A DNA stretch of 9,153 nucleotides from DRGV01 sp018903055 [NCBI: bacterium] (GTDB taxonomy: Bacteria; UBP18; UBA7526): NCBI GenBank assembly GCA_018903055.1, contig JAHIPW010000169.1, forward strand, positions 1 through 9,153, given 5' to 3'. The notes beneath the pieces were generated by a model, which saw only the letters and a list, made by a program, of their open reading frames with translations, was not told where the DNA came from and searched no databases. A program made the position numbers and the translations under genes. Shown here piece after piece: positions 1 through 7,757 of the stretch; position 1 is the first letter of the stretch, and every line of letters begins with the position of its first letter.

Positions 1-410
1 AGGGACAGTTCTTAGCCCCCTGGGATGTGAAGAATATCATTGAGAAGATTGAATCCGTAGGGAATAAAAATATTCTATTAACAGAGAGGGGAACGACCTT
101 CGGTTATAATAATTTAGTGGTTGATATGAAATCTCTGCCCATCATGCGCTCCCTCGGTTATCCGGTAATTTTCGATGCCACCCATAGCGTTCAATTGCCG
201 GGAGGGAGAGGGATAGCAACCGGTGGCAATGGGGAGTACATTCCTCACCTTGCCCGAGCAGCGGTAGCCTGTGGAGTAGACGCCCTATTTCTTGAGACCC
301 ATCCCAATCCAGATAAGGCATTATCCGATGGTCCCAATATGATGGAGATAGAAGAGCTGCCAAAACTTTTAAGAGAAGTAAAAGAGATAGACAGAATAGT
401 GAGAAAGTGA
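1..410 (+). CDS. kdsA: 3-deoxy-8-phosphooctulonate synthase (KdsA), C-terminal half, 5'-truncated by the window edge
   Basis: KdsA condenses phosphoenolpyruvate with arabinose-5-phosphate to give Kdo-8-phosphate, the committed cytoplasmic step towards the Kdo of LPS. The reading frame is open from base 3, giving 135 visible residues, about half of a normal protein of roughly 270. Visible family motifs are [11 protein letters not shown] at the very start, then [26 protein letters not shown], and [15 protein letters not shown] near the end. The His of DATHS and the Glu and Asp of ETHP...SDGPN correspond to metal ligands in metal-dependent KdsA such as the Aquifex enzyme. The fourth ligand, an N-terminal Cys, lies outside the window, so the metal class cannot be settled; the TTFGYNN and ALSD wording looks more like the metal-dependent class. 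Downstream lie kdsD and kdsC. Oddity: the last codons and stop form a 12-mer, GTGAGAAAGTGA (399-410), that recurs in the repeat array after kdsD (1500-1511). Confidence 0.96.
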
Positions 411-415
411 AGAAA

Positions 416-478
416 CAGGCTTCAAGCCACAGGCTACAGGTCGCAGGCTTGCAGCCTGAAGCATGAAGCTTGTAGCCT
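416..478. repeat. Nine exact-length 7-bp degenerate units with inverted halves
   Basis: The kdsA-kdsD gap divides without remainder into nine heptads. The first five are CAGGCTT-like (CAGGCTT, CAGGCTA, CAGGTCG). From 451 on they switch to the opposite orientation (GCAGCCT, GAAGCTT, GTAGCCT). AGGCTACA at 431-438 is the perfect reverse complement of TGTAGCCT at 471-478, and AGGCT 445-449 pairs with AGCCT 453-457, so a nested hairpin is possible. No U-tract follows (TAATTTTC is only weakly T-rich), so a classical terminator is not well supported. Periodicity and pairing are read directly; any role is unknown. Confidence 0.85.
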
Positions 479-482
479 AATT

Positions 483-524
483 TTCGTTGTTCATTGTAAA
501 ATGTTCAATATAAAATGAAGGAGA
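483..524. repeat. Heptad array of TTCATTG / TAAAATG type running into the kdsD start region
   Basis: Six consecutive 7-mers in one phase: TTCGTTG, TTCATTG, TAAAATG, TTCAATA, TAAAATG, AAGGAGA. The last unit contains the Shine-Dalgarno sequence AAGGAG (518-523) used by kdsD. The same word family (TTCAATG three times, then TAAAATG) sits immediately before kdsC at 1671-1698. The ATG inside TAAAATG at 515 is in frame with kdsD but is probably part of the repeat and not the true start. Confidence 0.75.
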
Positions 525-529
525 ATAGA

Positions 530-1489
530 ATGAGTATAGAGGATGCTAAGAGGGTATTGGAGATAGAATCAGAGGCCATTAAGGATTTGATAGAACAACT
601 GGATAGTAACTTCTCTCAAGCGATAGAGTTAATTAATAAGTGTAAGGGAAGAGTAATTGTCACGGGCCTGGGGAAGAGTGGGTTAATTGGTCGCAAGATC
701 GCTAGCACCCTCTCGAGCACTGGAACGAGCGCCTTCTTTGTTCATCCGGTAGAGGGAATGCATGGGGATATGGGGATGGTCATGAAAGAGGATATCGTTC
801 TTATTCTATCCTATAGCGGGGAGACGGAGGAGATGAAGAGAATCTTACCCCTGGTCAAGAGATTGGGACTGAAACTGGTCACCTTGACTGGAAATCCGGA
901 TTCCTCTTTAGCTAAGGAGTCGGATGTAATCTTGAATGTTAAAGTAAAGAGAGAGGCCTGTCCTTTTAACTTAGCCCCCACCGCCTCCACTACCGCTATG
1001 CTTGCTCTGGGCGATGCCCTGGCCATTGCTCTTTTGAATAAGAAGGGATTTAAGGAAAGCGACTTTGCCCTGATTCATCCTGCAGGAGTAATTGGAAAGA
1101 AACTCTTATTGAGAGTGGAAAATGTTATGAAAAAAGGAGAGGAGAATCCCTTAATAGATGAGGATAAAAGAGTGAAAGAGGCCCTGCTTGTTATGACCTC
1201 CACCAGACTGGGCGCGGTGAGCGTTGTGAATAAGGAGGGAAAACTTATTGGCTTCTTTACTGATGGAGACCTTCGCCGCTGCCTCCAGAAAGATAAGAAT
1301 CTTTTAGAGAAGAAGATCTCTTCAGTGATGACCAAAAAGCCGACAACCATCACCAAGAGGAAGCTGGCCACAGAGGCGGTGAGAATTTTGCAAGAGAAGG
1401 GGTTTGATAATATACCGGTGGTGGATGAGAATAATCGTCCCATTGGCATCGTCGATGAGAGAGACCTGTTGAAAGAGGGAATTGCCTGA
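530..1489 (+). CDS. kdsD: D-arabinose-5-phosphate isomerase (KdsD/KpsF family)
   Basis: Interconverts ribulose-5-phosphate and arabinose-5-phosphate in the cytoplasm, supplying the substrate of KdsA encoded just upstream. The start at 530 is chosen because AAGGAG at 518-523 lies 6 bases ahead; the in-frame ATG at 515 has no such site and lies in a repeat. The protein has 319 residues, close to the roughly 328 of E. coli KdsD. An N-terminal SIS domain (about 1-190) carries TGLGKSGLIGRK, with the conserved Lys near residue 49, then STGTSAFFVHP, HGDMGM, SYSGETEEM, EACPFNLAPTAST and ALIHPAG, matching the known active-site Lys, Glu, Glu and His positions of the family. Two CBS domains follow (about 200-319), ending in IPVVDENNRPIGIVDERDLL; CBS pairs are thought to regulate the enzyme. 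GutQ-type paralogues share this architecture, but the kdsA/kdsC context favours KdsD. Confidence 0.96.
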   Translation: MSIEDAKRVLEIESEAIKDLIEQLDSNFSQAIELINKCKGRVIVTGLGKSGLIGRKIASTLSSTGTSAFFVHPVEGMHGDMGMVMKEDIVLILSYSGETEEMKRILPLVKRLGLKLVTLTGNPDSSLAKESDVILNVKVKREACPFNLAPTASTTAMLALGDALAIALLNKKGFKESDFALIHPAGVIGKKLLLRVENVMKKGEENPLIDEDKRVKEALLVMTSTRLGAVSVVNKEGKLIGFFTDGDLRRCLQKDKNLLEKKISSVMTKKPTTITKRKLATEAVRILQEKGFDNIPVVDENNRPIGIVDERDLLKEGIA

Positions 1490-1491
1490 AA

Positions 1492-1698
1492 GTGAGCAGG
1501 TGAGAAAGTGAGAAAGTGGGAAAGTGGGAAAGTGAGACGGAGAAGCGGAGAATCGGGGAAACGGAGATCAGGTAATCGGTGACAGGTCATCGGTGATCAG
1601 TTGTTAGAAAACAGTTTTCCGATCTCTGATTTCACTACAGTTTTCCAATTTCTGTTAACTGATTTCGGATTTCAATGTTCAATGTTCAATGTAAAATG
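1492..1698. repeat. Octamer array that becomes a heptamer array and runs into the kdsC start
   Basis: Ten 8-bp units fill 1492-1571 (GTGAGAAA twice, GTGGGAAA twice, then GTGAGACG, GAGAAGCG, GAGAATCG, GGGAAACG and so on). From 1572 the period becomes exactly 7 and stays in phase to 1697: GTAATCG, GTGACAG, GTCATCG, GTGATCA, GTTGTTA, GAAAACA, then opposite-strand style units GTTTTCC, GATTTCA, TTTCTGT, TTTCGGA, and finally GTTCAAT twice and GTAAAAT. Units with GAAAAC/GAAATC character in the left part face GTTTTC/GATTTC units in the right part, so a long imperfect hairpin is possible. No promoter or terminator stands out in the 224 bp between kdsD and the chosen kdsC start. Confidence 0.85.
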
Positions 1699-1713
1699 AA
1701 AGTGAGAAAGAGA

Positions 1714-2238
1714 ATGCTCCAAGAGATACGGGAGAGAGCAAAAGGAATAAAGATGATTATTATGGATGTTGATGGGGTATTGACAGATGGCTGCATCATC
1801 TTAGGAAGTAAAGGAGAGGAGTTAAAGAATTTTTATGTCCAGGACGGCCAGGGAATCGCTCTTGCCTTACAGAAAGGGCTGATCATAGCGTTGGTTAGTG
1901 GACGGAGATCTAAAGTAGTGGAGAGAAGGGCAGAGGAATTAAAGATAAAAGAAGTCTATCAGAATATCTCAAAGAAGATAGAGGTCTATTCAAGACTCCT
2001 AAAGAAATACAACCTAAAGGATGAAGAGGTTGCTTATATCGGCGACGATCTGGGAGATATTCTTCCCTTAAAGAAGGTCGGCCTATCCTTGGCTCCAGCA
2101 AATGGAGTAGAAGAGGTCAGAGGCATCGTTCACTATGTTACCCGGGCTTCTGGAGGAAGAGGGGCAGTGAGGGAAGCGATAGACATTATCTTGAAGGCTA
2201 AGAAAACGGTAAAGGTCACGTTCAAAGGTTACGGTTAG
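1714..2238 (+). CDS. kdsC: 3-deoxy-8-phosphooctulonate phosphatase (KdsC), HAD superfamily
   Basis: Removes the phosphate from Kdo-8-phosphate to give free Kdo, the step after KdsA. All HAD signatures of the KdsC subgroup are present. DVDGVLTDG (residues 18-26) holds the catalytic Asp pair, VSGRRSKVVERR is motif II, the Lys of ISKKIEVY is motif III, YIGDDLGD is motif IV, and the C-terminal GGRGAVREAID is a KdsC hallmark. It lacks a cap domain, as the family does. With the start at 1714 the protein has 174 residues. In-frame ATGs at 1675 and 1696 would add MFNVQCK and MKVRKR, but both lie in repeated DNA (1671-1710) and no good ribosome binding site precedes any of the three; only a weak purine stretch GAGAAAGAG precedes 1714. 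The start is therefore uncertain, the function is not. The base after the stop begins the next inverted repeat. Confidence 0.94.
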   Translation: MLQEIRERAKGIKMIIMDVDGVLTDGCIILGSKGEELKNFYVQDGQGIALALQKGLIIALVSGRRSKVVERRAEELKIKEVYQNISKKIEVYSRLLKKYNLKDEEVAYIGDDLGDILPLKKVGLSLAPANGVEEVRGIVHYVTRASGGRGAVREAIDIILKAKKTVKVTFKGYG

Positions 2239-2418
2239 GATGCCCGTATCAGTAACGTTGAAGGGTTGTTGGATAACAGAAATCGGTTGTTAAAAAACGG
2301 AAATCGGTAGAGAAAACAGAGAACGGAGAACGGGAAAAACACTGATTTCAGATTTCTGATTTCGCTACTATTTTCTGATTTCCATCAACTGTTTTCCGAC
2401 TTCAAGAAAACGGGCATC
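2239..2418. repeat. Gap-filling inverted heptad array (20 units) with outer stem
   Basis: The segment begins on the base after the kdsC stop. The outer arms GATGCCCGT (2239-2247) and ACGGGCATC (2410-2418) are perfect complements; inside them TTGAAG (2258-2263) faces CTTCAA (2400-2405). Between them 2264-2403 divides exactly into twenty 7-mers. Eleven have left-hand character (GGTTGTT, AGAAATC, GGAAATC, AGAACGG twice, GAAAAAC). From 2341 nine have the opposite character (TCAGATT, TCTGATT, TATTTTC, TGATTTC, TGTTTTC). The whole could fold as one long imperfect hairpin in DNA or mRNA. It has no U-tract and is not a standard terminator. Its right half resembles the right half of the kdsD-kdsC gap. 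Confidence 0.85.
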
Positions 2419-2439
2419 GTTATCCCAACCGAATAACGA
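2417..2439 (+). promoter_or_regulatory. Small hairpin just upstream of the lptC start
   Basis: TCGTTAT at 2417-2423 is perfectly complementary to ATAACGA at 2433-2439, with a 9-base loop. It ends 11 bases before the lptC ATG, next to the purine-rich stretch AAGATGAAGAG that must serve as its weak ribosome binding site. It overlaps the outer arm of the larger inverted array by two bases. A role in lptC translation is possible but unproven. Confidence 0.4.
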
Positions 2440-2450
2440 AAGATGAAGAG

Positions 2451-2999
2451 ATGAAGAAACTGATTTTATTAGAAACTCTTATCTTAATCCTTATTTCAGG
2501 GGGCTGCACTTCAAAATCACCTCTTTCCCGAACGACAAATGATATCCCCGTTCCTCAGCAGAAGTTAGAGGATTTTAGACTAATCGCTACGGAGGGAGGA
2601 ATAAAGACCTGGGTGTTGGAGGCCCGCGCCGCCCAGATCTATGAGAAGATCAAGAAAACTTATATTCAGGACTTCAAGACCTCCCTCTATGAAGAGGGCG
2701 AACTGGCCTCCATCCTCTCTGGCCAAAGAGGAATTCTTGACATAGCCACCAATAATATGAAGGCCACGGGAAATGTAGTTGTGACCTCGGCAAAGGGCTC
2801 GTGCCTGGAGACAGAGGAACTTCGCTACCTATCCCCTACAGGAAAACAGAAGGGAAAGTTCGTTACTGAGGAGTTCGTCAAGATTACCGAGCCAGATAGG
2901 ATAACTACGGGTTATGGTCTGGAGGTAGAATCCGACTTAGAGAATGCAAAGATAAAAAGGGATGTCAAGGTAAAGGTAGAGGCTCTAAGTGTACCGTAA
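2451..2999 (+). CDS. lptC: LptC-like LPS export protein with lipoprotein-like leader
   Basis: LptC belongs to the periplasmic bridge that receives LPS from the LptB2FG ABC transporter and hands it to LptA. The protein has 182 residues (E. coli LptC has 191). It starts with a basic, strongly hydrophobic leader ending in LISGGC, with Cys at residue 19; this reads as a loose lipobox, although position -3 is Ser instead of the usual Leu. The rest has the beta-rich LptC/OstA pattern: FRLIATEGGIKTWVLEARAAQIYE, YIQDFKTSLYEEGELASILSGQRG, NNMKATGNVVVTSAKG, LETEELRYLSPTGK and ITTGYGLEVESDLENAKIKRDV. Assignment rests on this pattern and on position directly before lptA and lptB. Its 3' end overlaps lptA by 11 bases, implying translational coupling. 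The ribosome binding site is weak (GAAGAG). Anchoring by lipid or by a transmembrane helix cannot be decided from sequence alone. Confidence 0.85.
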   Translation: MKKLILLETLILILISGGCTSKSPLSRTTNDIPVPQQKLEDFRLIATEGGIKTWVLEARAAQIYEKIKKTYIQDFKTSLYEEGELASILSGQRGILDIATNNMKATGNVVVTSAKGSCLETEELRYLSPTGKQKGKFVTEEFVKITEPDRITTGYGLEVESDLENAKIKRDVKVKVEALSVP

Positions 3000-3627
3000 A
3001 TTAATCTTTCTATCCCTGATTTTTGTACTCTTTGCCCCTCCCTCCTGGGGAGGGGAGAAGAAAGGCCCCCCCCTGGATATTACCTCAGATGAGGTAGAGT
3101 ATACTAAGGTAAAGGGGAAAGAGGTAGTAATCTTCACCGGCCATGTGGTTGCTATTCAGGAGACTACTACTCTAAAGGGCGACCGACTGAAGTTCTTTCC
3201 GGATGAGAATAAGGCTGTTGCCGAAGGTCGGGCTTGGATGAAGGATGAGAAACAGAAGATGGTCCTAACAGGCGAGAGAATAGAATATTATCACGATAAA
3301 AGGTACGGGATGGCTACCGGGAGCCCAAGATTGGTGAGCGAGAAGGAGAACTTTATTCTGACTAGCAAGGAGATGGAGGCCTTTTTCCCTGAGGACAGAT
3401 TTCGGGCCACAGGAAGGGTGAAACTAGTAAGGGATGATATGGTAGCCACCGGCAAAGTACTAGATTATTTCAATAAAGAGAGGAAGGTTATTCTCACTGG
3501 TGATCCCCAGATAAGGGAAAAGGAGAACTTTATCACTGGAGATAAGATAACATTCTTCGTTGATGAATATCGGGTGATAGTTGAAGATAGAGCAAGAATA
3601 AAGTTTATTCCGGAGGGGAAGGAATGA
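2989..3627 (+). CDS. lptA: LptA/OstA-family periplasmic LPS-binding protein
   Basis: LptA polymerises into the beta-jellyroll bridge along which LPS crosses the periplasm. The start is the GTG at 2989 inside the last codons of lptC (11-base overlap), because it gives a proper signal peptide at once: basic YRK, a hydrophobic stretch LIFLSLIFVLFAPP, and a cleavage region near SWGG, with mature protein from about residue 22. The mature part is a run of OstA-type beta repeats, recognisable by recurring wording such as LDITSDEVEYTKVKGKEVVIFTG, LKGDRLKFF, MVLTGERIEYY, FRATGRVKLVRDD and ENFITGDKITFFVDE. Length 212 compares with 185 for E. coli LptA, so there is room for an extra repeat. The stop is followed directly by one arm of a 12-bp inverted repeat whose other arm covers the lptB ribosome binding site. 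Confidence 0.9.
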   Translation: MYRKLIFLSLIFVLFAPPSWGGEKKGPPLDITSDEVEYTKVKGKEVVIFTGHVVAIQETTTLKGDRLKFFPDENKAVAEGRAWMKDEKQKMVLTGERIEYYHDKRYGMATGSPRLVSEKENFILTSKEMEAFFPEDRFRATGRVKLVRDDMVATGKVLDYFNKERKVILTGDPQIREKENFITGDKITFFVDEYRVIVEDRARIKFIPEGKE

Positions 3628-3732
3628 ACCCCGCCCCTCATAGAATCGATAATCTTGAAATTGAAAAGCTTGAAATGATAGATTTTTTCTTTATAGAAGT
3701 TATTTGCTTGAGCATAAAAGGAGGGGCGGGGT
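3628..3732 (+). promoter_or_regulatory. Perfect 12-bp GC-rich inverted repeat linking the lptA stop to the lptB ribosome binding site and start
   Basis: ACCCCGCCCCTC at 3628-3639, beginning on the base after the lptA TGA, is the exact reverse complement of GAGGGGCGGGGT at 3721-3732. The right arm contains part of the lptB Shine-Dalgarno sequence (AAGGAGGGG 3718-3726) and the first two bases of its GTG start (3731-3733). In a message reading through from lptA the stem would hide the lptB start, with an 81-base AT-rich interior. The pairing is seen directly; control of lptB translation is inference. Confidence 0.7.
3670..3697 (+). promoter_or_regulatory. Possible sigma-70-type promoter inside the lptA-lptB gap
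   Basis: TTGAAA (3670-3675, 5 of 6 to TTGACA), then 16 bases, then TATAGA (3692-3697, 4 of 6 to TATAAT). The region is AT-rich and contrasts with the GC-rich arms around it. A transcript from here would start near 3704, leaving out the left arm of the inverted repeat and so leaving the lptB start open. The match is modest and could be chance. Confidence 0.3.
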
Positions 3733-4456
3733 GAAGACCCTTAAAATCCAGGGATTAGTCAAGAGCTATAAAAGAAGGAGGGTGGTAGATGATGTCAACC
3801 TGGAGGTGGGGCAGGGAGAGGTCGTTGGCCTTCTGGGCCCCAATGGAGCAGGGAAGACTACTACCTTCTATATGGTTGTGGGATTGGTCAAGCCAGATCG
3901 GGGTCGGATACTCATCGACGACTTCAATCTCAGCAAACTGCCCATGTATAAGAGGGCGAGAAAGGGGGTTGGCTATCTCGCTCAGGAGCCTTCTATCTTC
4001 AGAAAACTCACCGTGGAGGAGAATATCCTAGCTATTCTGGAGACCCTAAACCTAGACGAGGATGAAAAAGCGAATCGTTTGAAAAAACTTTTAGCAGAAC
4101 TTAATATCTCTCATCTGGCTAAAAACAGGGCCTATACCCTCTCTGGGGGAGAGAGAAGAAGGGTTGAAATTACCCGAGCCCTAGTTACCGCTCCTTCATT
4201 TATTCTTTTGGATGAGCCGTTTACTGGTATCGATCCTATCGCCATCGCTGATATCCAGGAGATTATCTTCCAACTCAAGAAGAAAGGGATTGGGATCCTG
4301 ATTACCGATCATAGCGTCCGAGAAACCTTGGCCATCACCGATCGAGCATATATCATGTATGAAGGGGAGATTCTAATCTCTGGCACCTCTCAGGAATTAG
4401 CGGATAGTAAAGAAGCCAGGGAAATCTATCTAGGAGAGAAATTCACCTTAGAATAA
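3731..4456 (+). CDS. lptB: LPS export ABC transporter ATP-binding protein LptB
   Basis: LptB is the cytoplasmic ATPase that, as a dimer with LptF and LptG, extracts LPS from the inner membrane. The GTG at 3731 is chosen as start: AAGGAGGGG lies just upstream, and the resulting 241 residues match the usual LptB length and beginning; an upstream in-frame TTG at 3704 lacks support. Motifs in order: Walker A GPNGAGKT (36-43), Q-loop Gln 85 in [15 protein letters not shown], signature [15 protein letters not shown] (from 137), Walker [14 protein letters not shown] with catalytic Glu 162, and switch His 194 in [11 protein letters not shown]. The wording FYMVVG, SIFRKL and ITDHxVRETL is specific to LptB among ABC ATPases. 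LptF and LptG are not in the window. Translation may be controlled by the inverted repeat covering its start. Confidence 0.97.
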
Positions 4457-4541
4457 ACGCAAAAGCGCCAAAAGGAACGCTAAAACGCCAAAAAGTCCGC
4501 TAAGATTTTTGCGTCTTTCAGTTAAATTTTGTGTTTTGGCG
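4457..4541. repeat. Twelve-unit inverted heptad array between lptB and hpf
   Basis: From 4458 to 4541 the sequence divides exactly into twelve 7-mers. The left half is CGCAAAA, GCGCCAA, GCTAAAA, CGCCAAA and similar; the right half is TTTTGCG, TCTTTCA, TTTGTGT, TTTGGCG and similar. CGCAAAA (4458-4464) is the exact complement of TTTTGCG (4507-4513), and CGCCAAAA (4486-4493) of TTTTGGCG (4534-4541). The array begins two bases after the lptB stop and ends shortly before the hpf ribosome binding site. An ATP-synthase-like or sigma-54 gene could fit here in other genomes, but nothing coding is present. Confidence 0.8.
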
Positions 4542-4560
4542 GTTACAAGGGAGGTTTAAG

Positions 4561-5103
4561 ATGGATTTAACTATTACTGGACGGGGAATTAAAATAACCG
4601 CACCTCTAAGAAATTATATTCAGAAGAAGATGGCAGATGTTTTGAAGTATTTCGAGAAACTGGTGAGTGCCCACGTTAAGATTATTGTTTCCAAGGAGCG
4701 TCAAAGGGCGGAGGTAGTCATCTATGGAGATGGCCTTACTTTCAAGGCCCTTCAGGTCTCACCTGATATGTATGCCTCTTTCGATGAGGCGCTGGCTAAG
4801 GTTACCGGGCAGATAAAAAAACACAAAGATATAGTTTCTCACAAGGGAAGACATAAGCCAAAACACTTCGGGGCCAAGATAAAGGTTATTACCCCAAGCG
4901 AGATCAAGAAAGAGAAGCACGGGATTATTTCAAGTAGAAGGTTTGCCATAAAACCCATGAGTCCATCAGAGGCAGCAGAACAGATGGAACTATTGGATTA
5001 TAGCTTCTTTGTTTTCTTCAATCCTCAAACAGAGCAAGTGAACGTTGTCTATCGCAGGAAGGATAAAAACTACGGCCTCATCGAGCCTGAGTTCTGGTTT
5101 TAA
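4561..5103 (+). CDS. hpf: Ribosome hibernation-promoting factor, long form (HPF/RaiA)
   Basis: Long-form HPF binds the 30S decoding region with its N-terminal domain and dimerises through its C-terminal domain, joining two 70S ribosomes into inactive 100S particles in starved cells. The ATG at 4561 is preceded by a strong AAGGGAGG (4547-4554). The product has 180 residues, typical of the long form. The N-terminal domain (about 1-105) begins MDLTITGRGIKITAPLRNYI and is rich in Lys/Arg. A linker of about 25 residues follows. The C-terminal dimerisation domain (about 125-180) has the classic KPMSPSEAAEQMELLDYSFFVFFN and VNVVYRRKDKNYGLIEPEF. In many proteobacteria hpf lies downstream of lptB with rpoN between; here rpoN is missing. 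The last codons and stop form one arm of a hairpin. Confidence 0.96.
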   Translation: MDLTITGRGIKITAPLRNYIQKKMADVLKYFEKLVSAHVKIIVSKERQRAEVVIYGDGLTFKALQVSPDMYASFDEALAKVTGQIKKHKDIVSHKGRHKPKHFGAKIKVITPSEIKKEKHGIISSRRFAIKPMSPSEAAEQMELLDYSFFVFFNPQTEQVNVVYRRKDKNYGLIEPEFWF

Positions 5104-5120
5104 TAAATTAAAACCAGAAC
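5091..5120 (+). terminator. Perfect 13-bp hairpin overlapping the hpf stop codon
   Basis: GTTCTGGTTTTAA (5091-5103, the final hpf codons including TAA) is the exact reverse complement of TTAAAACCAGAAC (5108-5120), with the 4-base loop TAAA. A stem this long at a 3' gene end suggests transcript termination or mRNA end protection, but no run of U follows (AACCTTTGG), so intrinsic termination is doubtful. The right arm is also the beginning of the first copy of a 54-bp tandem repeat. Confidence 0.5.
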
Positions 5121-5219
5121 AACCTTTGGCGAGTGCAACGAGACAAAGTCCTTTGGTTTTAAAAGAACCAAAACAACCTTTGGCGAGTGAAACGAGACAA
5201 AGTCCTTTGGTTCTGAAAG
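5112..5219. repeat. Two-copy 54-bp tandem direct repeat
   Basis: Copy 1 is 5112-5165 and copy 2 is 5166-5219. They differ at four positions in 54. Each carries AACC(A/G)...CAACCTTTGGCGAGTG, then ACGAGACAAAGTCCTTTGG. At the junction TTTGGTT (5152-5158) faces AACCAAA (5166-5172), giving a hairpin centred between copies. Because 54 is a multiple of three, both strands stay open through the repeat and give spurious 18-residue peptide repeats; the absence of a start site and the amino-acid-changing differences argue against coding. Confidence 0.85.
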
Positions 5220-5303
5220 ACACGAATCATCGCGAATGACACGAAGCAAGAAATAAAGGGATGCGAATATACGCGAATACTAAAACACGCCTGCCCCGTG
5301 GGA

Positions 5304-5328
5304 GTCCGTCCGACAAAGACGGACGGAC
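5304..5328. repeat. GC-rich 9-bp hairpin
   Basis: GTCCGTCCG (5304-5312) and CGGACGGAC (5320-5328) are perfect complements around a 7-base loop ACAAAGA. Flanking CCCC (5293-5296) and GGGG (5337-5340) could extend the structure. No U-tract follows on either strand, so termination is not indicated. It may be a small dispersed palindromic element. Confidence 0.6.
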
Positions 5329-5443
5329 GACTTTATGGGGAATCGACACGAATCTGTGATTTGCCTGCCCTGTAGCTTCCGATTTATCAGAATGGTATGG
5401 GGTGCGAATTCCTACCTGCCGCCAAGCAGACGTAATCAAGCCG

Positions 5444-5463
5444 ACTCCGACACTTGTCGGGGT
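5444..5463. repeat. Short palindromic hairpin
   Basis: CCGACA (5447-5452) pairs with TGTCGG (5455-5460), and the stem can be extended outward to 5444-5463 with one G-T pair. It lies about 20 bases ahead of the ribosome binding site of the following gene and has no T-run. Role unknown. Confidence 0.45.
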
Positions 5464-5495
5464 GTCCGAATCTGTGTCTAGGGAGGTGATTAAAA

Positions 5496-5840
5496 ATGGT
5501 CAAAAAGACGGGAATTAGTGGCAGGTCCATCGCTTCTATGGTGATAGGAATATGCAGCTTGCCCCTTTTCATTCCCATCCCTCTTCCGGGAATGATTCCC
5601 GGCCTGGGTCTTGTTCTGGGAATTGTGGCCATCATCTTAGCAGCCATAGAGTTGAAGGCCATTGCCAAGGGGAAAGTGGACTCCAGGAGCAGGGGATTTG
5701 CTATTGCCGGAATGGCAACGGGAATCGTAGGAGCAATATCTGGAGTGCTCTTCATTATATTCTTCGGAGCAGTTGCCTCTACTGTATTAGCAGCAATTGC
5801 TGCTGCCTTAAAGAGTGGCCAGATTCCTATCCCCAAATAA
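5496..5840 (+). CDS. Small DUF4190-like integral membrane protein
   Basis: A protein of 114 residues with a basic N-terminus (VKKTGISGRS) and two hydrophobic blocks. The first (about 12-50, ASMVIGICSLPLFIPIPLPG then LGLVLGIVAIILAAIELKAI) may form two helices; the second (about 68-105, GFAIAGMATGIVGAISGVLF onward) follows a short KGKVDSRSR loop. The pattern of SIASMVIGI, a Pro-rich turn, LGIVAIILAAIELKAI and RGFAIAGMATGIVG fits DUF4190-type proteins, whose function is unknown. The start is well fixed: GGGAGGTGAT (5481-5490), a near-perfect complement of the 16S rRNA 3' end, lies 5 bases before the ATG. It stands between repeat-filled gaps and pairs with another small membrane gene downstream. 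Family placement is by pattern and could be a related glycine-rich membrane family. Confidence 0.75.
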   Translation: MVKKTGISGRSIASMVIGICSLPLFIPIPLPGMIPGLGLVLGIVAIILAAIELKAIAKGKVDSRSRGFAIAGMATGIVGAISGVLFIIFFGAVASTVLAAIAAALKSGQIPIPK

Positions 5841-5845
5841 ATAAA

Positions 5846-5926
5846 CACGGATTAGCACGGATAACAACACGGATTAGCACGGATTTAATCCGTGACCATC
5901 CGTAAAAAATCTGTGATTATCCGTGT
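5846..5926. repeat. CACGGATTA-type tandem units in inverted halves
   Basis: The left half has four units beginning CACGGAT at 5846, 5856, 5868 and 5878 (spacings 10, 12, 10). The right half carries the complement: AATCCGTG (5887-5894), ATCCGT, ATCTGTGA and TTATCCGTG (5917-5925). CACGGATT (5878-5885) and AATCCGTG (5887-5894) make a tight palindrome at the centre, and CACGGATAA (5856-5864) matches TTATCCGTG at the edge. Similar CACGGATTA strings are common intergenic repeats in many environmental bacteria (from general knowledge). The array fills the gap up to the next ribosome binding site. Confidence 0.8.
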
Positions 5927-5941
5927 ATTAAGGAGGTATTT

Positions 5942-6298
5942 ATGGCAAAAAAGAAAGGGAAATCCGCCCCAAGCGGAAAAAAGAAGGAGAAAGGAAAAGA
6001 GATTGAAGAGGGAAAGGTCTTCGCTGCCCTTTCCTATCTCTGGCTTCTGAGCGTCATTATTCTCTTTGGGAAGAAAGAGGATAAGTTCGTTGCCTTCCAC
6101 GCCAAGCAAGGAGTGGTACTATTTGGCTGTATTATTGCTGGCTGGATCATCTGTTTAATTCCTTATGTGCGATTCTTAGGTTGGATAGTAAGGATCGCCT
6201 GCTGGGCGGGGATGCTCATCGGGATTATTAAATCCCTGGGAGAAGAGAAATTCAAGATTCCCTTAGTCGGCGATTTGGCAGAAAAGATCAAAGTTTAA
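5942..6298 (+). CDS. Small DUF4870/Tic20-like membrane protein
   Basis: A protein of 118 residues. The first 24 residues are extremely basic (MAKKKGKSAPSGKKKEKGKE). Then come EEGKVFAALSYLWLLSVIIL, a short loop FGKKEDKFVAFHAKQGVVLF, and hydrophobic stretches GCIIAGWIICLIPY and LGWIVRIACWAGMLIGIIKSL, so about three membrane helices, ending in a tail KIPLVGDLAEKIKV. The combination of an S-Y-L-W helix, a KFVxFHAKQG motif, and a tail with IPLVGDLAEKI is typical of DUF4870/Tic20-like small membrane proteins of unknown function. The Lys-rich leader is longer than usual and likely cytoplasmic. AAGGAGGTAT (5930-5939) lies directly before the ATG. The gene sits between another small membrane gene and mgtE. 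Confidence 0.8.
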   Translation: MAKKKGKSAPSGKKKEKGKEIEEGKVFAALSYLWLLSVIILFGKKEDKFVAFHAKQGVVLFGCIIAGWIICLIPYVRFLGWIVRIACWAGMLIGIIKSLGEEKFKIPLVGDLAEKIKV

Positions 6299-6299
6299 T

Positions 6300-6374
6300 C
6301 AGTCTGACCAGTCGAACCAGCCTAACCAGTCTGACCGGTCGACAGGCTGACAGGCTGACAGGTAGACAGGTAGA
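6300..6374. repeat. Tandem array changing from 9-bp to 8-bp units
   Basis: Four 9-bp units (CAGTCTGAC, CAGTCGAAC, CAGCCTAAC, CAGTCTGAC; 6300-6335) are followed by a 7-bp CGGTCGA and then four 8-bp units (CAGGCTGA twice, CAGGTAGA twice; 6343-6374). All share the core CAG..(T/G)GA. Unlike most other gaps, no clear mirror half is visible, although CAGTCTGAC and CAGGCTGA contain partly complementary words. No riboswitch-like conserved structure for mgtE (M-box) was found in the remaining 27 bases. Confidence 0.85.
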
Positions 6375-6401
6375 CCGTTTAACTAATGACAAGGAAATCC
6401 T

Positions 6402-7757
6402 ATGACCAAGAAGATACTCAAAACCATCCAGAGTTATTTAAAGAAGAATGAGATGGGGCCCCTGCATGACTTTCTAAAAAGTTTGAGGCCCGGGGACATC
6501 TCTGAGGCCATGAAGAGCCTGGATGAGGATGAGAGGAAGACGGTCTTCGGTCTCCTGGGCGTAGAAAGCGCCTCTGGCCTATTTCACGAAGTAGATATCC
6601 ATGTAATCAGCAGAATACTACAAGATTGGGACAATGCTCGATTGGCGAAGATTTTAGATATCACTGCTTCAGATGATGGGGCGGATGTCTTAGGAGTCCT
6701 ACCCCATAAGAAGAGAGATAAGATCCTTAAACTTATGGATAAGAAGAAAGCAAAGGAGGTTCAGAAGCTTTTAATCTATGATGAGAAGACCGCTGGTGGG
6801 ATAATGACCACGGACTTTGTTACTCTGAGTCAAGACCTTAAGGTAAGAGAAGCCTTAGAATATATCCGCAAGAATGTTAATATTGAAACTATTCATCATG
6901 TCTATGTTATAGATAGAGAAGAGCGCCTGGTCGGAGTATTACCCTTAAGGAGACTTATTTCCATAAGTCCGGAAAGAGAGGAGATTATTCTCAACGATAT
7001 CATGACCTCCAATGTCATCACCACCAAGATAAACACCGATCAGGAGGAGATTACAAAGTTAGTAGCCCAACATAACCTCTTAGCTCTTCCCGTAGTAGAT
7101 GGAGAAGGCAGGATGGTGGGAAGGATTACGGTAGACGATGTCATTGACGTTGTCCAGCAGGAAGCGAATGAGGACTTCTACAAGATGGCTGGTGCCTTAT
7201 GGGAAGCAGGCTATCTTGATAAGACAATTTTTACTAAAGTCAGAATGAGACTTCCCTGGCTCTTAGCCTGTCTTTTGGGAGGAGTAATTACCGGTGGTGT
7301 CATCACGTTCTTCAGAGAAGCCATAAGCCAGGTGGTTGTCTTGGCCTGTTTCATCCCTGTCATTATGGGCATGGGAGGGAATGTGGGCATCCAGTCATCG
7401 ACCATCGTAATCCGAGGGATAGCCACCGGCCATATAGACATTCACGTCATTCGGAAATTTCTCTTCAAAGAGATCAGCGTGGGACTGATTCTGGGTCTCA
7501 TCTGTGGTCTGGGGATTGGAATCGCTGCTCGATTCTGGCCAAACGCAAAGCCGCTATTGGGCATTGTAGTGGGAATAGCCATGTTCATTGCCCTGGCTGT
7601 CGCCGCCACCTTTGGAGCCCTACTCCCGGCACTTTTCAAGAGACTGAATATTGATCCCGCAGTGGCCGCCGGCCCCTTCATTACCACGATCATCGATGTC
7701 GCTGCCATCGCCGTCTATCTCGGCCTGGCCACCATGCTTTTAACCCTTCTGGTTTAG
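6402..7757 (+). CDS. mgtE: Magnesium transporter MgtE
   Basis: MgtE is a homodimeric, Mg2+-gated inner-membrane channel for Mg2+ uptake. The ATG at 6402 follows AAGGAA (6391-6396) at a good distance. The 451 residues match the family (about 450 in Thermus). An acidic-helical MgtE_N domain (about 1-130) is followed by two CBS domains (about 130-255; GGIMTTDFVTL, VLPLRRLI, DIMTSNVITT and LPVVDGEGRMVGRITVDDVIDVV), which sense cytoplasmic Mg2+. A connecting helix GALWEAGYLDKTIFTKVRMR leads to a five-helix membrane domain (about 285-451). The pore signatures MGMGGNVGIQSSTIVIRG and DPAVAAGPFITTIIDV are intact, and the Asp of the latter is residue 432, matching the ion-binding Asp 432 described for Thermus MgtE. 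The stop is followed after one base by the recO ATG, so the two are almost certainly co-translated. Confidence 0.97.
   Translation: MTKKILKTIQSYLKKNEMGPLHDFLKSLRPGDISEAMKSLDEDERKTVFGLLGVESASGLFHEVDIHVISRILQDWDNARLAKILDITASDDGADVLGVLPHKKRDKILKLMDKKKAKEVQKLLIYDEKTAGGIMTTDFVTLSQDLKVREALEYIRKNVNIETIHHVYVIDREERLVGVLPLRRLISISPEREEIILNDIMTSNVITTKINTDQEEITKLVAQHNLLALPVVDGEGRMVGRITVDDVIDVVQQEANEDFYKMAGALWEAGYLDKTIFTKVRMRLPWLLACLLGGVITGGVITFFREAISQVVVLACFIPVIMGMGGNVGIQSSTIVIRGIATGHIDIHVIRKFLFKEISVGLILGLICGLGIGIAARFWPNAKPLLGIVVGIAMFIALAVAATFGALLPALFKRLNIDPAVAAGPFITTIIDVAAIAVYLGLATMLLTLLV

What the first reader, a model, noticed from the sequence alone, without database searches (positions are those of the whole stretch)
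411..6374. Short-period degenerate arrays fill nearly every intergenic gap, each with its own unit but a fixed period
Six separate gaps (416-524, 1492-1698, 2264-2403, 4458-4541, 5846-5926, 6300-6374) consist almost wholly of tandem units, mostly 7 bp, with stretches of 8, 9 or 10-12 bp. The unit sequence differs between gaps, so this is not one copied transposable element, yet the period stays exact over up to 20 units although units are as little as half identical. In at least four gaps the second half is roughly the reverse complement of the first. Nothing I can name (CRISPR, REP, BIMEs, ordinary microsatellites) combines strict period, free unit sequence, arm inversion and confinement to gaps. 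A process that makes or maintains such arrays (slippage at hairpins, template-guided copying, or a bound protein with a 7-base step) is a possible undescribed system. Heptamer arrays are known in cyanobacteria (STRR), but there they repeat one fixed unit.
Basis: partly seen in the sequence, partly recalled or inferred. Interest (0 to 1): 0.75.

Follow-up and report, generated by a model that had tools for sequence, protein, structure and literature searches.

The report
Dispersed hairpin arrays filling gene gaps
In a little-known bacterial lineage, short repeat-built hairpins that seem to come and go as whole blocks fill many of the spaces between genes; they look like tiny mobile sequences whose arms are made of 7-to-10-letter steps, a known kind of thing in an unusually dense and variable form.

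Summary
It holds in the sampled parts of the own genome (11%) and its family: 286 of 680 gaps carry an array, shuffles give few. Window 2239-2450 has 20 further relatives in its own genome and 5841-5930 has dozens of matches in four genomes. Orthologous gaps mostly lack or replace an array whole, with about eight clean empty sites; most retained arrays are nearly unchanged. Inside an arm, similarity falls with unit distance, as stepwise duplication predicts; no conserved core stands out. Best reading: non-autonomous, hairpin-forming interspersed elements (MITE/REP-like in behaviour) with degenerate minisatellite arms. Three mover families (Y1, DDE_Tnp_1, reverse transcriptase) gave no match in six incomplete family genomes, so the mover is unknown. 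Closest published: paired heptamer/octamer sites of Geobacter metallireducens, paired GGGAATC heptamers of Xanthomonas, the BrickBuilt MITE. New variant of a known kind.

The parts
411..531 (+). kdsA-like/kdsD gap: heptad hairpin (CAGGCTTCAAGCC.../...GAAGCTTGTAGCC), then a TTCAATATAAAATG end before the kdsD start
   Evidence: lag 7 z +7.1; fold z -4.8 for 416-524; related arrays, 70-80% over 50-75 bp, in L044 and L056; no gap at this junction in L003 and L004
1490..1698 (+). kdsD/kdsC gap: 8-bp units (AGTGRGAA, then CGGAGAA-type) passing into heptads that end in TTCAATG units
   Evidence: TRF 8-bp 1488-1537 and 7-bp 1671-1692; lag 8 0.68-0.88 in windows starting 1490-1532, lag 7 0.37-0.74 from 1560; 31 bp of degenerate units identical in G001
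2239..2450 (+). kdsC/lptC gap: member of a dispersed quasi-palindromic family, with inner heptad arms; outer ends GATGCCCGT/ACGGGCATC
   Evidence: 31 matches in G000 with itself, 20 distinct further places at E<=1.1e-10, identity 69-88%, most covering the inner part (about 34-180) only; fold z -3.8
3628..3730 (+). lptA/lptB gap: MITE-like element with terminal inverted repeat ACCCCGCCCCTC/GAGGGGCGGGGT, possibly flanked by TGA; not a heptad array
   Evidence: fold z -3.5; relatives 80-84% over about 76 bp in L120, L124, L177; junction with 0 and 5 bp in L003 and L004
4457..4560 (+). lptB/hpf gap: degenerate about 10/20-bp array; weak case
   Evidence: lag 20 z +4.7; fold z -1.2 for 4458-4541; no relative among sampled gaps (where the gap was cut at 4530)
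5104..5220 (+). two tandem 54-bp palindromic repeats; not a heptad array
   Evidence: TRF period 54, 92% matches; relatives in gaps of G003, G004, G005
5841..5930 (+). DUF4190/DUF4870 gap: CACGGAT hairpin, units 10-12 bp apart, strongest hairpin among those tested
   Evidence: fold z -8.7 for 5846-5926; matches in 7 of 9 genomes searched: G000 42, G001 34, G003 47, G004 38, G005 12, G002 1, G023 1; palindromic copies can count twice and candidates were capped at 40 scored in three genomes
6299..6383 (+). DUF4870/mgtE gap: 9-bp then 8-bp array
   Evidence: lag 8 z +5.5, lag 9 +3.2; fold z -1.4 for 6300-6374; no relative among sampled gaps
3..2238 (+). flanking genes: KdsA-like (DAHP_synth_1), KdsD (SIS+CBS), KdsC (HAD); gene names inferred from Pfam matches and order
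   Evidence: Pfam
2451..7757 (+). flanking genes: LptC, LptA, LptB (ABC), ribosome hibernation factor (S30AE), DUF4190-like, DUF4870-like, MgtE
   Evidence: Pfam; the DUF4190 and DUF4870 matches are below the curated cut-offs

Best explanation
The gaps carry many short, non-autonomous, hairpin-forming interspersed elements. SHOWN: periodic degenerate arms; several families dispersed at many sites of the same genome; whole-block presence or absence between orthologous gene pairs; near-identity of most retained arrays; similarity of units falling with distance along an arm; occasional one-unit length changes; strand bias relative to transcription for some unit families. INFERRED: an element arrives or is lost as a block, moved in trans by a recombinase not identified here (or by one now lost). 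Its arms lengthen and shorten by replication slippage in steps of one unit, perhaps favoured by hairpin formation. Point mutations carried along by later duplications make the unit drift, so arms are already degenerate when an element is copied elsewhere. The 7/8-bp step may reflect the polymerase footprint, an idea reported in PMC4692102. Selection then keeps elements out of coding sequence and mostly between co-directional genes. No function beyond a tolerated intercistronic hairpin is needed.
For: Lag 7/8 peak in gaps: G000 z 19.4/13.7, G003 z 21.7/11.3, not in CDS. Dispersal: in sampled G003, 5227 of 10454 array bases lie in non-orthologous within-genome matches at E<1e-10; whole-genome counts. 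Whole-block turnover: of 54 array-bearing comparisons among G003/G004/G005 (three overlapping pairwise sets), 12 keep or align the array and 42 differ or lack it by my thresholds; about 8 junctions with clean empty sites by eye. Retained arrays: three of four in G003/G004 nearly unchanged, one 78 of 78 bases. Drift: unit identity at 1-5 steps 0.66, 0.59, 0.52, 0.44, 0.40 against column-shuffled 0.53-0.50 (k=7, 110 arms), 0.71 to 0.48 against 0.61-0.57 (k=8, 79 arms). One-unit indels stand slightly above neighbours: k=7: 17 of 7 bp against 13 of 6 and 3 of 8; k=8: 9 of 8 bp against 3 of 7 and 2 of 9. Arms complementary in phase outside the segment used to find the centre (0.31-0.34 against about 0.27).
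Against: No mover found: no match to Y1_Tnp, RVT_1 or DDE_Tnp_1 in six family genomes (53-93% complete); rve once each in G000 and G002, the latter with an internal stop; other families not searched. No consistent target-site duplication by eye. About half of array bases in sampled G003 have no such copy; 4457 and 6299 match no sampled gap. Gaps without an array also have copies (59 of 197 in G003 at E<=1e-10), so dispersal is not special to arrays. In dispersed alignments most indels are 1-3 bp (k=7: 148, 44 and 46), not one unit. Arms share phase and unit but not mirrored unit order, which a simple hairpin-copy model would predict. Hairpin excess is moderate: z<-3 in 40% of 203 array gaps against 29% of 244 other gaps. 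One 'conserved' pair (L132:6169 against L159) shares only one arm.
Confidence: 0.56

Rival explanations
1. Ordinary in-place slippage: each gap grows its own degenerate heptamer or octamer minisatellite from local sequence, without any mobile element.
For: Drift along arms and some one-unit indels; a unit-number difference between orthologous gaps (L128 against L170); heptamer over-representation in bacteria and a polymerase-footprint idea are reported in PMC4692102 (passages); at the kdsA end the last codons resemble the first units.
Against: Same unit order at many sites for several families; clean empty sites; most retained arrays almost unchanged.
Confidence: 0.25
2. Binding-site arrays for a protein or regulator with a 7/8-bp step, as proposed for Geobacter metallireducens classes 1-3.
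For: Paired, opposite-strand tandem 7/8-mers are the anatomy described there (PMC2700814, passages and supplement legends); the reverse complement of its class 2 unit resembles the ACGGAGA units here.
Against: Sorted column conservation 0.89-0.45 (k=7) is close to the scatter null 0.86-0.48, so no core stands out; 62 k=7 and 78 k=8 unit clusters; wholesale loss between species at 87-89% median aa identity.
Confidence: 0.07
3. RNA-level role between cistrons: hairpins or stops that separate, stabilise or couple neighbouring genes.
For: 278 of 639 co-directional gaps carry an array against 8 of 41 others, p=0.003; sense-strand bias for some of 15 hand-picked unit patterns, AGTGRGAA 14:0 and GGTTTACGG-type 28:4 (p uncorrected); GC skew +0.24 at the 5' end falling to -0.06 in array gaps; stops in all three frames in the first 60 nt 47% against 38% shuffled.
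Against: Orthologous junctions work with no gap at all; other patterns show no bias (CTGATAT 10:9, AACCAGT 5:4); orientation bias may come from insertion or replication bias.
Confidence: 0.09
4. Assembly artefact of short-read metagenome assemblies.
For: The window's genome is a 191-contig MAG.
Against: The same arrays, degenerate units included, occur in other MAGs: window against HyVt-354 (L007, and G001 contigs), G003 against G004.
Confidence: 0.02

Closest known systems
Geobacter metallireducens putative global regulator sites, classes 1-3 (PMC2700814; passages and supplement legends seen)
   Same: tandem octamers/heptamers, most in pairs on opposite strands at variable distance, many copies, several unit families in one genome
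   Different: 3-5 units with a fixed consensus per class, tens of sites; here many more families, drifting units, 42% of sampled gaps; read there as possible IHF/HU sites
GGGAATC and GGGGA(T/C)T heptamer repeats of Xanthomonas and Nostoc (PMC4692102; passages seen)
   Same: intergenic heptamers, in Xanthomonas 70-75 convergent inverted pairs per genome, variable between close species
   Different: one G-rich unit type per genome; studied as G-quadruplexes
BrickBuilt MITE of Porphyromonas gingivalis (PMC4596501; abstract seen)
   Same: a minisatellite inside a MITE, always intergenic, multiple copies
   Different: one 23-nt unit with leader and tail, 19 copies; the repeat is not the inverted arms
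REP/BIME/REPIN elements (search listings only, and recalled)
   Same: intergenic palindromes, dispersed, non-autonomous
   Different: no Y1 transposase match in six incomplete family genomes; arms are tandem degenerate units
TAACTGA repeats of Beggiatoaceae and others (PMC4679880; abstract and one section seen)
   Same: intergenic heptamers, there mostly just upstream of start codons
   Different: one fixed heptamer; near variants rarely repeated

Membership tests
MITE | terminal inverted repeats | tested here: inconclusive
   hairpin arms significant in four of six reader gaps and in 3628-3730; not in 4458-4541 and 6300-6374
MITE | multiple dispersed copies | tested here: met
   met for 2239-2450, 5841-5930 and 3628-3730; not for 4457 and 6299
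MITE | target-site duplication | tested here: inconclusive
   none consistent by eye; possible TGA at 3628-3730
MITE | related autonomous element or transposase | tested here: inconclusive
   no Y1_Tnp or DDE_Tnp_1 match; rve in 2 of 6; other families not searched
REP/REPIN with RAYT | Y1 (RAYT-type) transposase in the genome | tested here: not met
   PF01797 in 0 of 6 family genomes, which are 53-93% complete
REP/REPIN with RAYT | GTAG or CGTC tag beside the palindrome | not tested
   feature known here only from the search listing of PMC3733652
Heptamer SSR (fixed unit) | one fixed near-perfect unit | tested here: not met
   62 k=7 unit clusters; units drift along arms
Regulator-binding array | conserved core positions with free spacers | tested here: not met
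   column profile close to a scatter null for k=7 (116 arrays) and k=8 (76 arrays); the CACGGAT family was not tested for this
Known structured RNA | Rfam match at gathering score | tested here: not met
   0 matches in the window

The most novel reading that the evidence does not exclude
An undescribed class of intergenic elements, dense in UBP18 and patchy in distant lineages, whose arms are built by hairpin-guided copying in fixed 7/8-base steps with any unit sequence, and which spread without the transposase and reverse-transcriptase families tested.
Probability: 0.16. Interest if true: 0.8.

Novelty: new variant of a known kind. Interest (0 to 1): 0.5.

Why it matters
These genomes are small (about 0.8-1.4 Mb as assembled) and gave almost no match to the common mover families tested, yet over two fifths of their sampled gene gaps hold fast-turning-over repeat arrays, many of them hairpins. 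That makes them a natural test of how short repeats with a preferred 7/8-base step arise, spread and are tolerated between genes. It may also link scattered reports (Geobacter, Xanthomonas, cyanobacteria, Beggiatoaceae) into one process.

Tried and rejected
Core/spacer model (protein footprint): per-column conservation is close to a scatter null. Unit-directed mutation: in orthologous arrays the alternative base equals the base one unit away in 39 of 92 chances (0.42), within the range at other lags (0.25-0.43); the dispersed set peaks (0.53 against 0.26-0.40) but mixes copies with same-unit arrays, so I do not use it as evidence. Mirror-copied arms: reverse-complement similarity is as high one unit out of register as in register. 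Known RNA: none. Periods that are multiples of 3 look rare (6: 3, 9: 19, 12: 8 against 7: 158, 8: 120, 10: 35, summed), but arrays without stops may be swallowed by my ORF caller, so I draw nothing from it. The first gene-caller version failed and was debugged; the caller is home-made, so gap edges are approximate. Of the 35 'array vs no gap' rows many are poor alignments or caller errors; I count about 8 junctions by eye. The 54 comparisons overlap, and its thresholds misfile at least one alignable pair as lacking the array. Literature: (and on polymerase mechanisms); two searches listed nothing; PMC4853749 was looked at in passages and not used. My recollection that similar strings are common in other candidate phyla, and of in-vitro hairpin elongation by thermophile polymerases, is memory only and supports nothing here.
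Full report
WHERE. The window is a whole 9153-base contig of a 1.085 Mb, 191-contig genome (G000:C164). Named relatives found with the window's hibernation factor include 'bacterium UBP18_UBA7526', three CSMAG genomes and HyVt-354. The genes look like KdsA, KdsD, KdsC, LptC, LptA, LptB, hibernation factor, DUF4190, DUF4870 and MgtE proteins.

CHECK. Self-match tests confirm periodicity in the named gaps, weakest at 4457-4560. The step is 7, 8, 9 or about 10 and can change inside one gap, for example 8 then 7 in 1490-1698. Hairpin folding is strong for 5846-5926, 416-524 and 2264-2403, moderate for 1492-1698 and not significant for 6300-6374 and 4458-4541.

BEYOND THE WINDOW. With a home-made ORF caller (its calls on the window are printed), gaps in the sampled 122 kb of G000 show lag 7 at 0.339 and lag 8 at 0.325 against shuffles of 0.263 and 0.262 and CDS of 0.263 and 0.256; gaps in 296 kb of G003 show 0.317 and 0.298 against 0.264 and 0.264, CDS 0.266 and 0.255. 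With more sequence, arrays are found in 42 of 69 gaps of G000, 11 of 16 of G001 (with L007), 4 of 20 of G002, 148 of 353 of G003, 44 of 104 of G004 and 37 of 118 of G005, 286 of 680 in all. Base-shuffled gaps give 0.00-0.31 arrays per kb in the five family genomes against 1.54-6.82 observed. Density in predicted CDS is 0.13 per kb against 2.455 in gaps.

OTHER LINEAGES. Of 35 other genomes sampled at one contig stretch each (up to 20 kb), 5 had too little gap sequence. Of the other 30, 10 had at least one called array, and lag 7 or 8 exceeded z 3 clearly in G006, G021 and G023. The pattern AGTGNGAAAGTGNGAAAGTG occurs in 6 of 193 whole genomes: five of the six UBP18-family genomes (not G002) and G023; the reversed control is 0 in the family, but occurs in G023 and once in G145. 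GGAAATT heptads occur in 5 of 386 whole genomes, the reversed control in one. One of these, G070, distant ('same domain'), has a 39-unit array whose unit changes step by step while the 7-base phase holds (L206:1417-1690). So the phenomenon is patchy in these samples.

COPIES. BLAST of gaps against gaps shows dispersed, often quasi-palindromic families of about 80-250 bp. In sampled G003, 82 of 152 array gaps, and 59 of 197 other gaps, have a non-orthologous within-genome match at E<=1e-10 over at least 60 bp; half of all array bases lie in such matches. At the orthologous DUF4190 junction, G003 carries the same CACGGAT element with an insert of about 98 bases in the middle; a copy in G000 L055 carries a shorter related insert (sequence printed).

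TURNOVER. The KdsA/KdsD junction has an array in the window, in G001, and in G003 and G004 (these two share one), three different contents, and overlapping genes with no gap in L003 and L004 (UBA7526, CSMAG_2684). Among G003/G004/G005 (median aa identity 87-89%), 54 comparisons involve an array: 12 keep or align it, 42 differ or lack it by threshold. About 8 junctions give clean filled and empty pairs by eye, one of them filled by different blocks in G002 (which has N there) and G003. Three of the four arrays retained between G003 and G004 are nearly unchanged, degenerate units included, so their degeneracy is older than that split.

ARM STRUCTURE. Within arms, units resemble near neighbours more than far ones, against a flat shuffled null. 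The one-step value is favoured by how arrays were found; the fall from 2 to 5 steps is not selected directly. Column conservation shows no special core. The two arms share unit and phase but not unit order. Of 15 hand-picked unit patterns some lie almost only on the sense strand, nearer the upstream gene (AGTGRGAA 14:0, GGTTTACGG-type 28:4); others show no bias (CTGATAT 10:9).

MECHANISM. Stepwise duplication plus point mutation explains drift; hairpin pairing could keep both arms in one phase; block gain and loss plus copies explain dispersal. Against a strict step, most indels between dispersed copies are 1-3 bp and one-unit indels are only a small excess. The polymerase-footprint idea for a 7-base preference is reported, not shown, in PMC4692102 (passages). 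The mover is unknown: PF01797, PF00078 and PF01609 have no match in the six family genomes and PF00665 matches in two; these genomes are 53-93% complete and other recombinase families were not searched.

NOVELTY. Paired heptamer/octamer arrays, intergenic heptamers and a minisatellite in a MITE are all in print (PMC2700814, PMC4692102, PMC4596501, PMC4679880). The density, the number of unit families, the drift and the whole-block turnover were not found described in the searches made. I therefore call it a new variant of a known kind. On re-checking, secure copies are two of the six reader gaps rather than four, and small indels dominate; for this I lowered the main reading from 0.60 to 0.56 and raised in-place slippage from 0.22 to 0.25.

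Noticed in passing
window 5104-5220: Two tandem 54-bp palindromic repeats with relatives in gaps of G003, G004 and G005; a similar pair stands at the same junction of HyVt-354 (L007).
   Followed up: partly
window 3628-3730: MITE-like element with 12-bp terminal inverted repeats and possible TGA duplication; in L006 (G003) the same junction holds a longer version with a CACGGAT-type hairpin inside.
   Followed up: partly
L213, about 1843-2040: CACGGAT element split by an insert of about 98 bases relative to the window's orthologous copy; a shorter related insert occurs in a G000 copy (L055).
   Followed up: partly
L206:1417-1724: 39-unit heptad array with drifting unit, then an 8-bp array, in a distant genome (G070).
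   Followed up: partly
L007:3766-5093: HyVt-354 has about 1.3 kb between recO and glyS where the window has 46 bp; the extra stretch was not analysed.
   Followed up: no
window 5942-6298: The DUF4870-like protein is only 58% identical to HyVt-354 over the aligned part, while DUF4190-like and MgtE neighbours are 86-89%.
   Followed up: no
L208, L209, L210: Three viral contigs (IMG/VR) hold an exact match to the AGTGRGAA array pattern.
   Followed up: no
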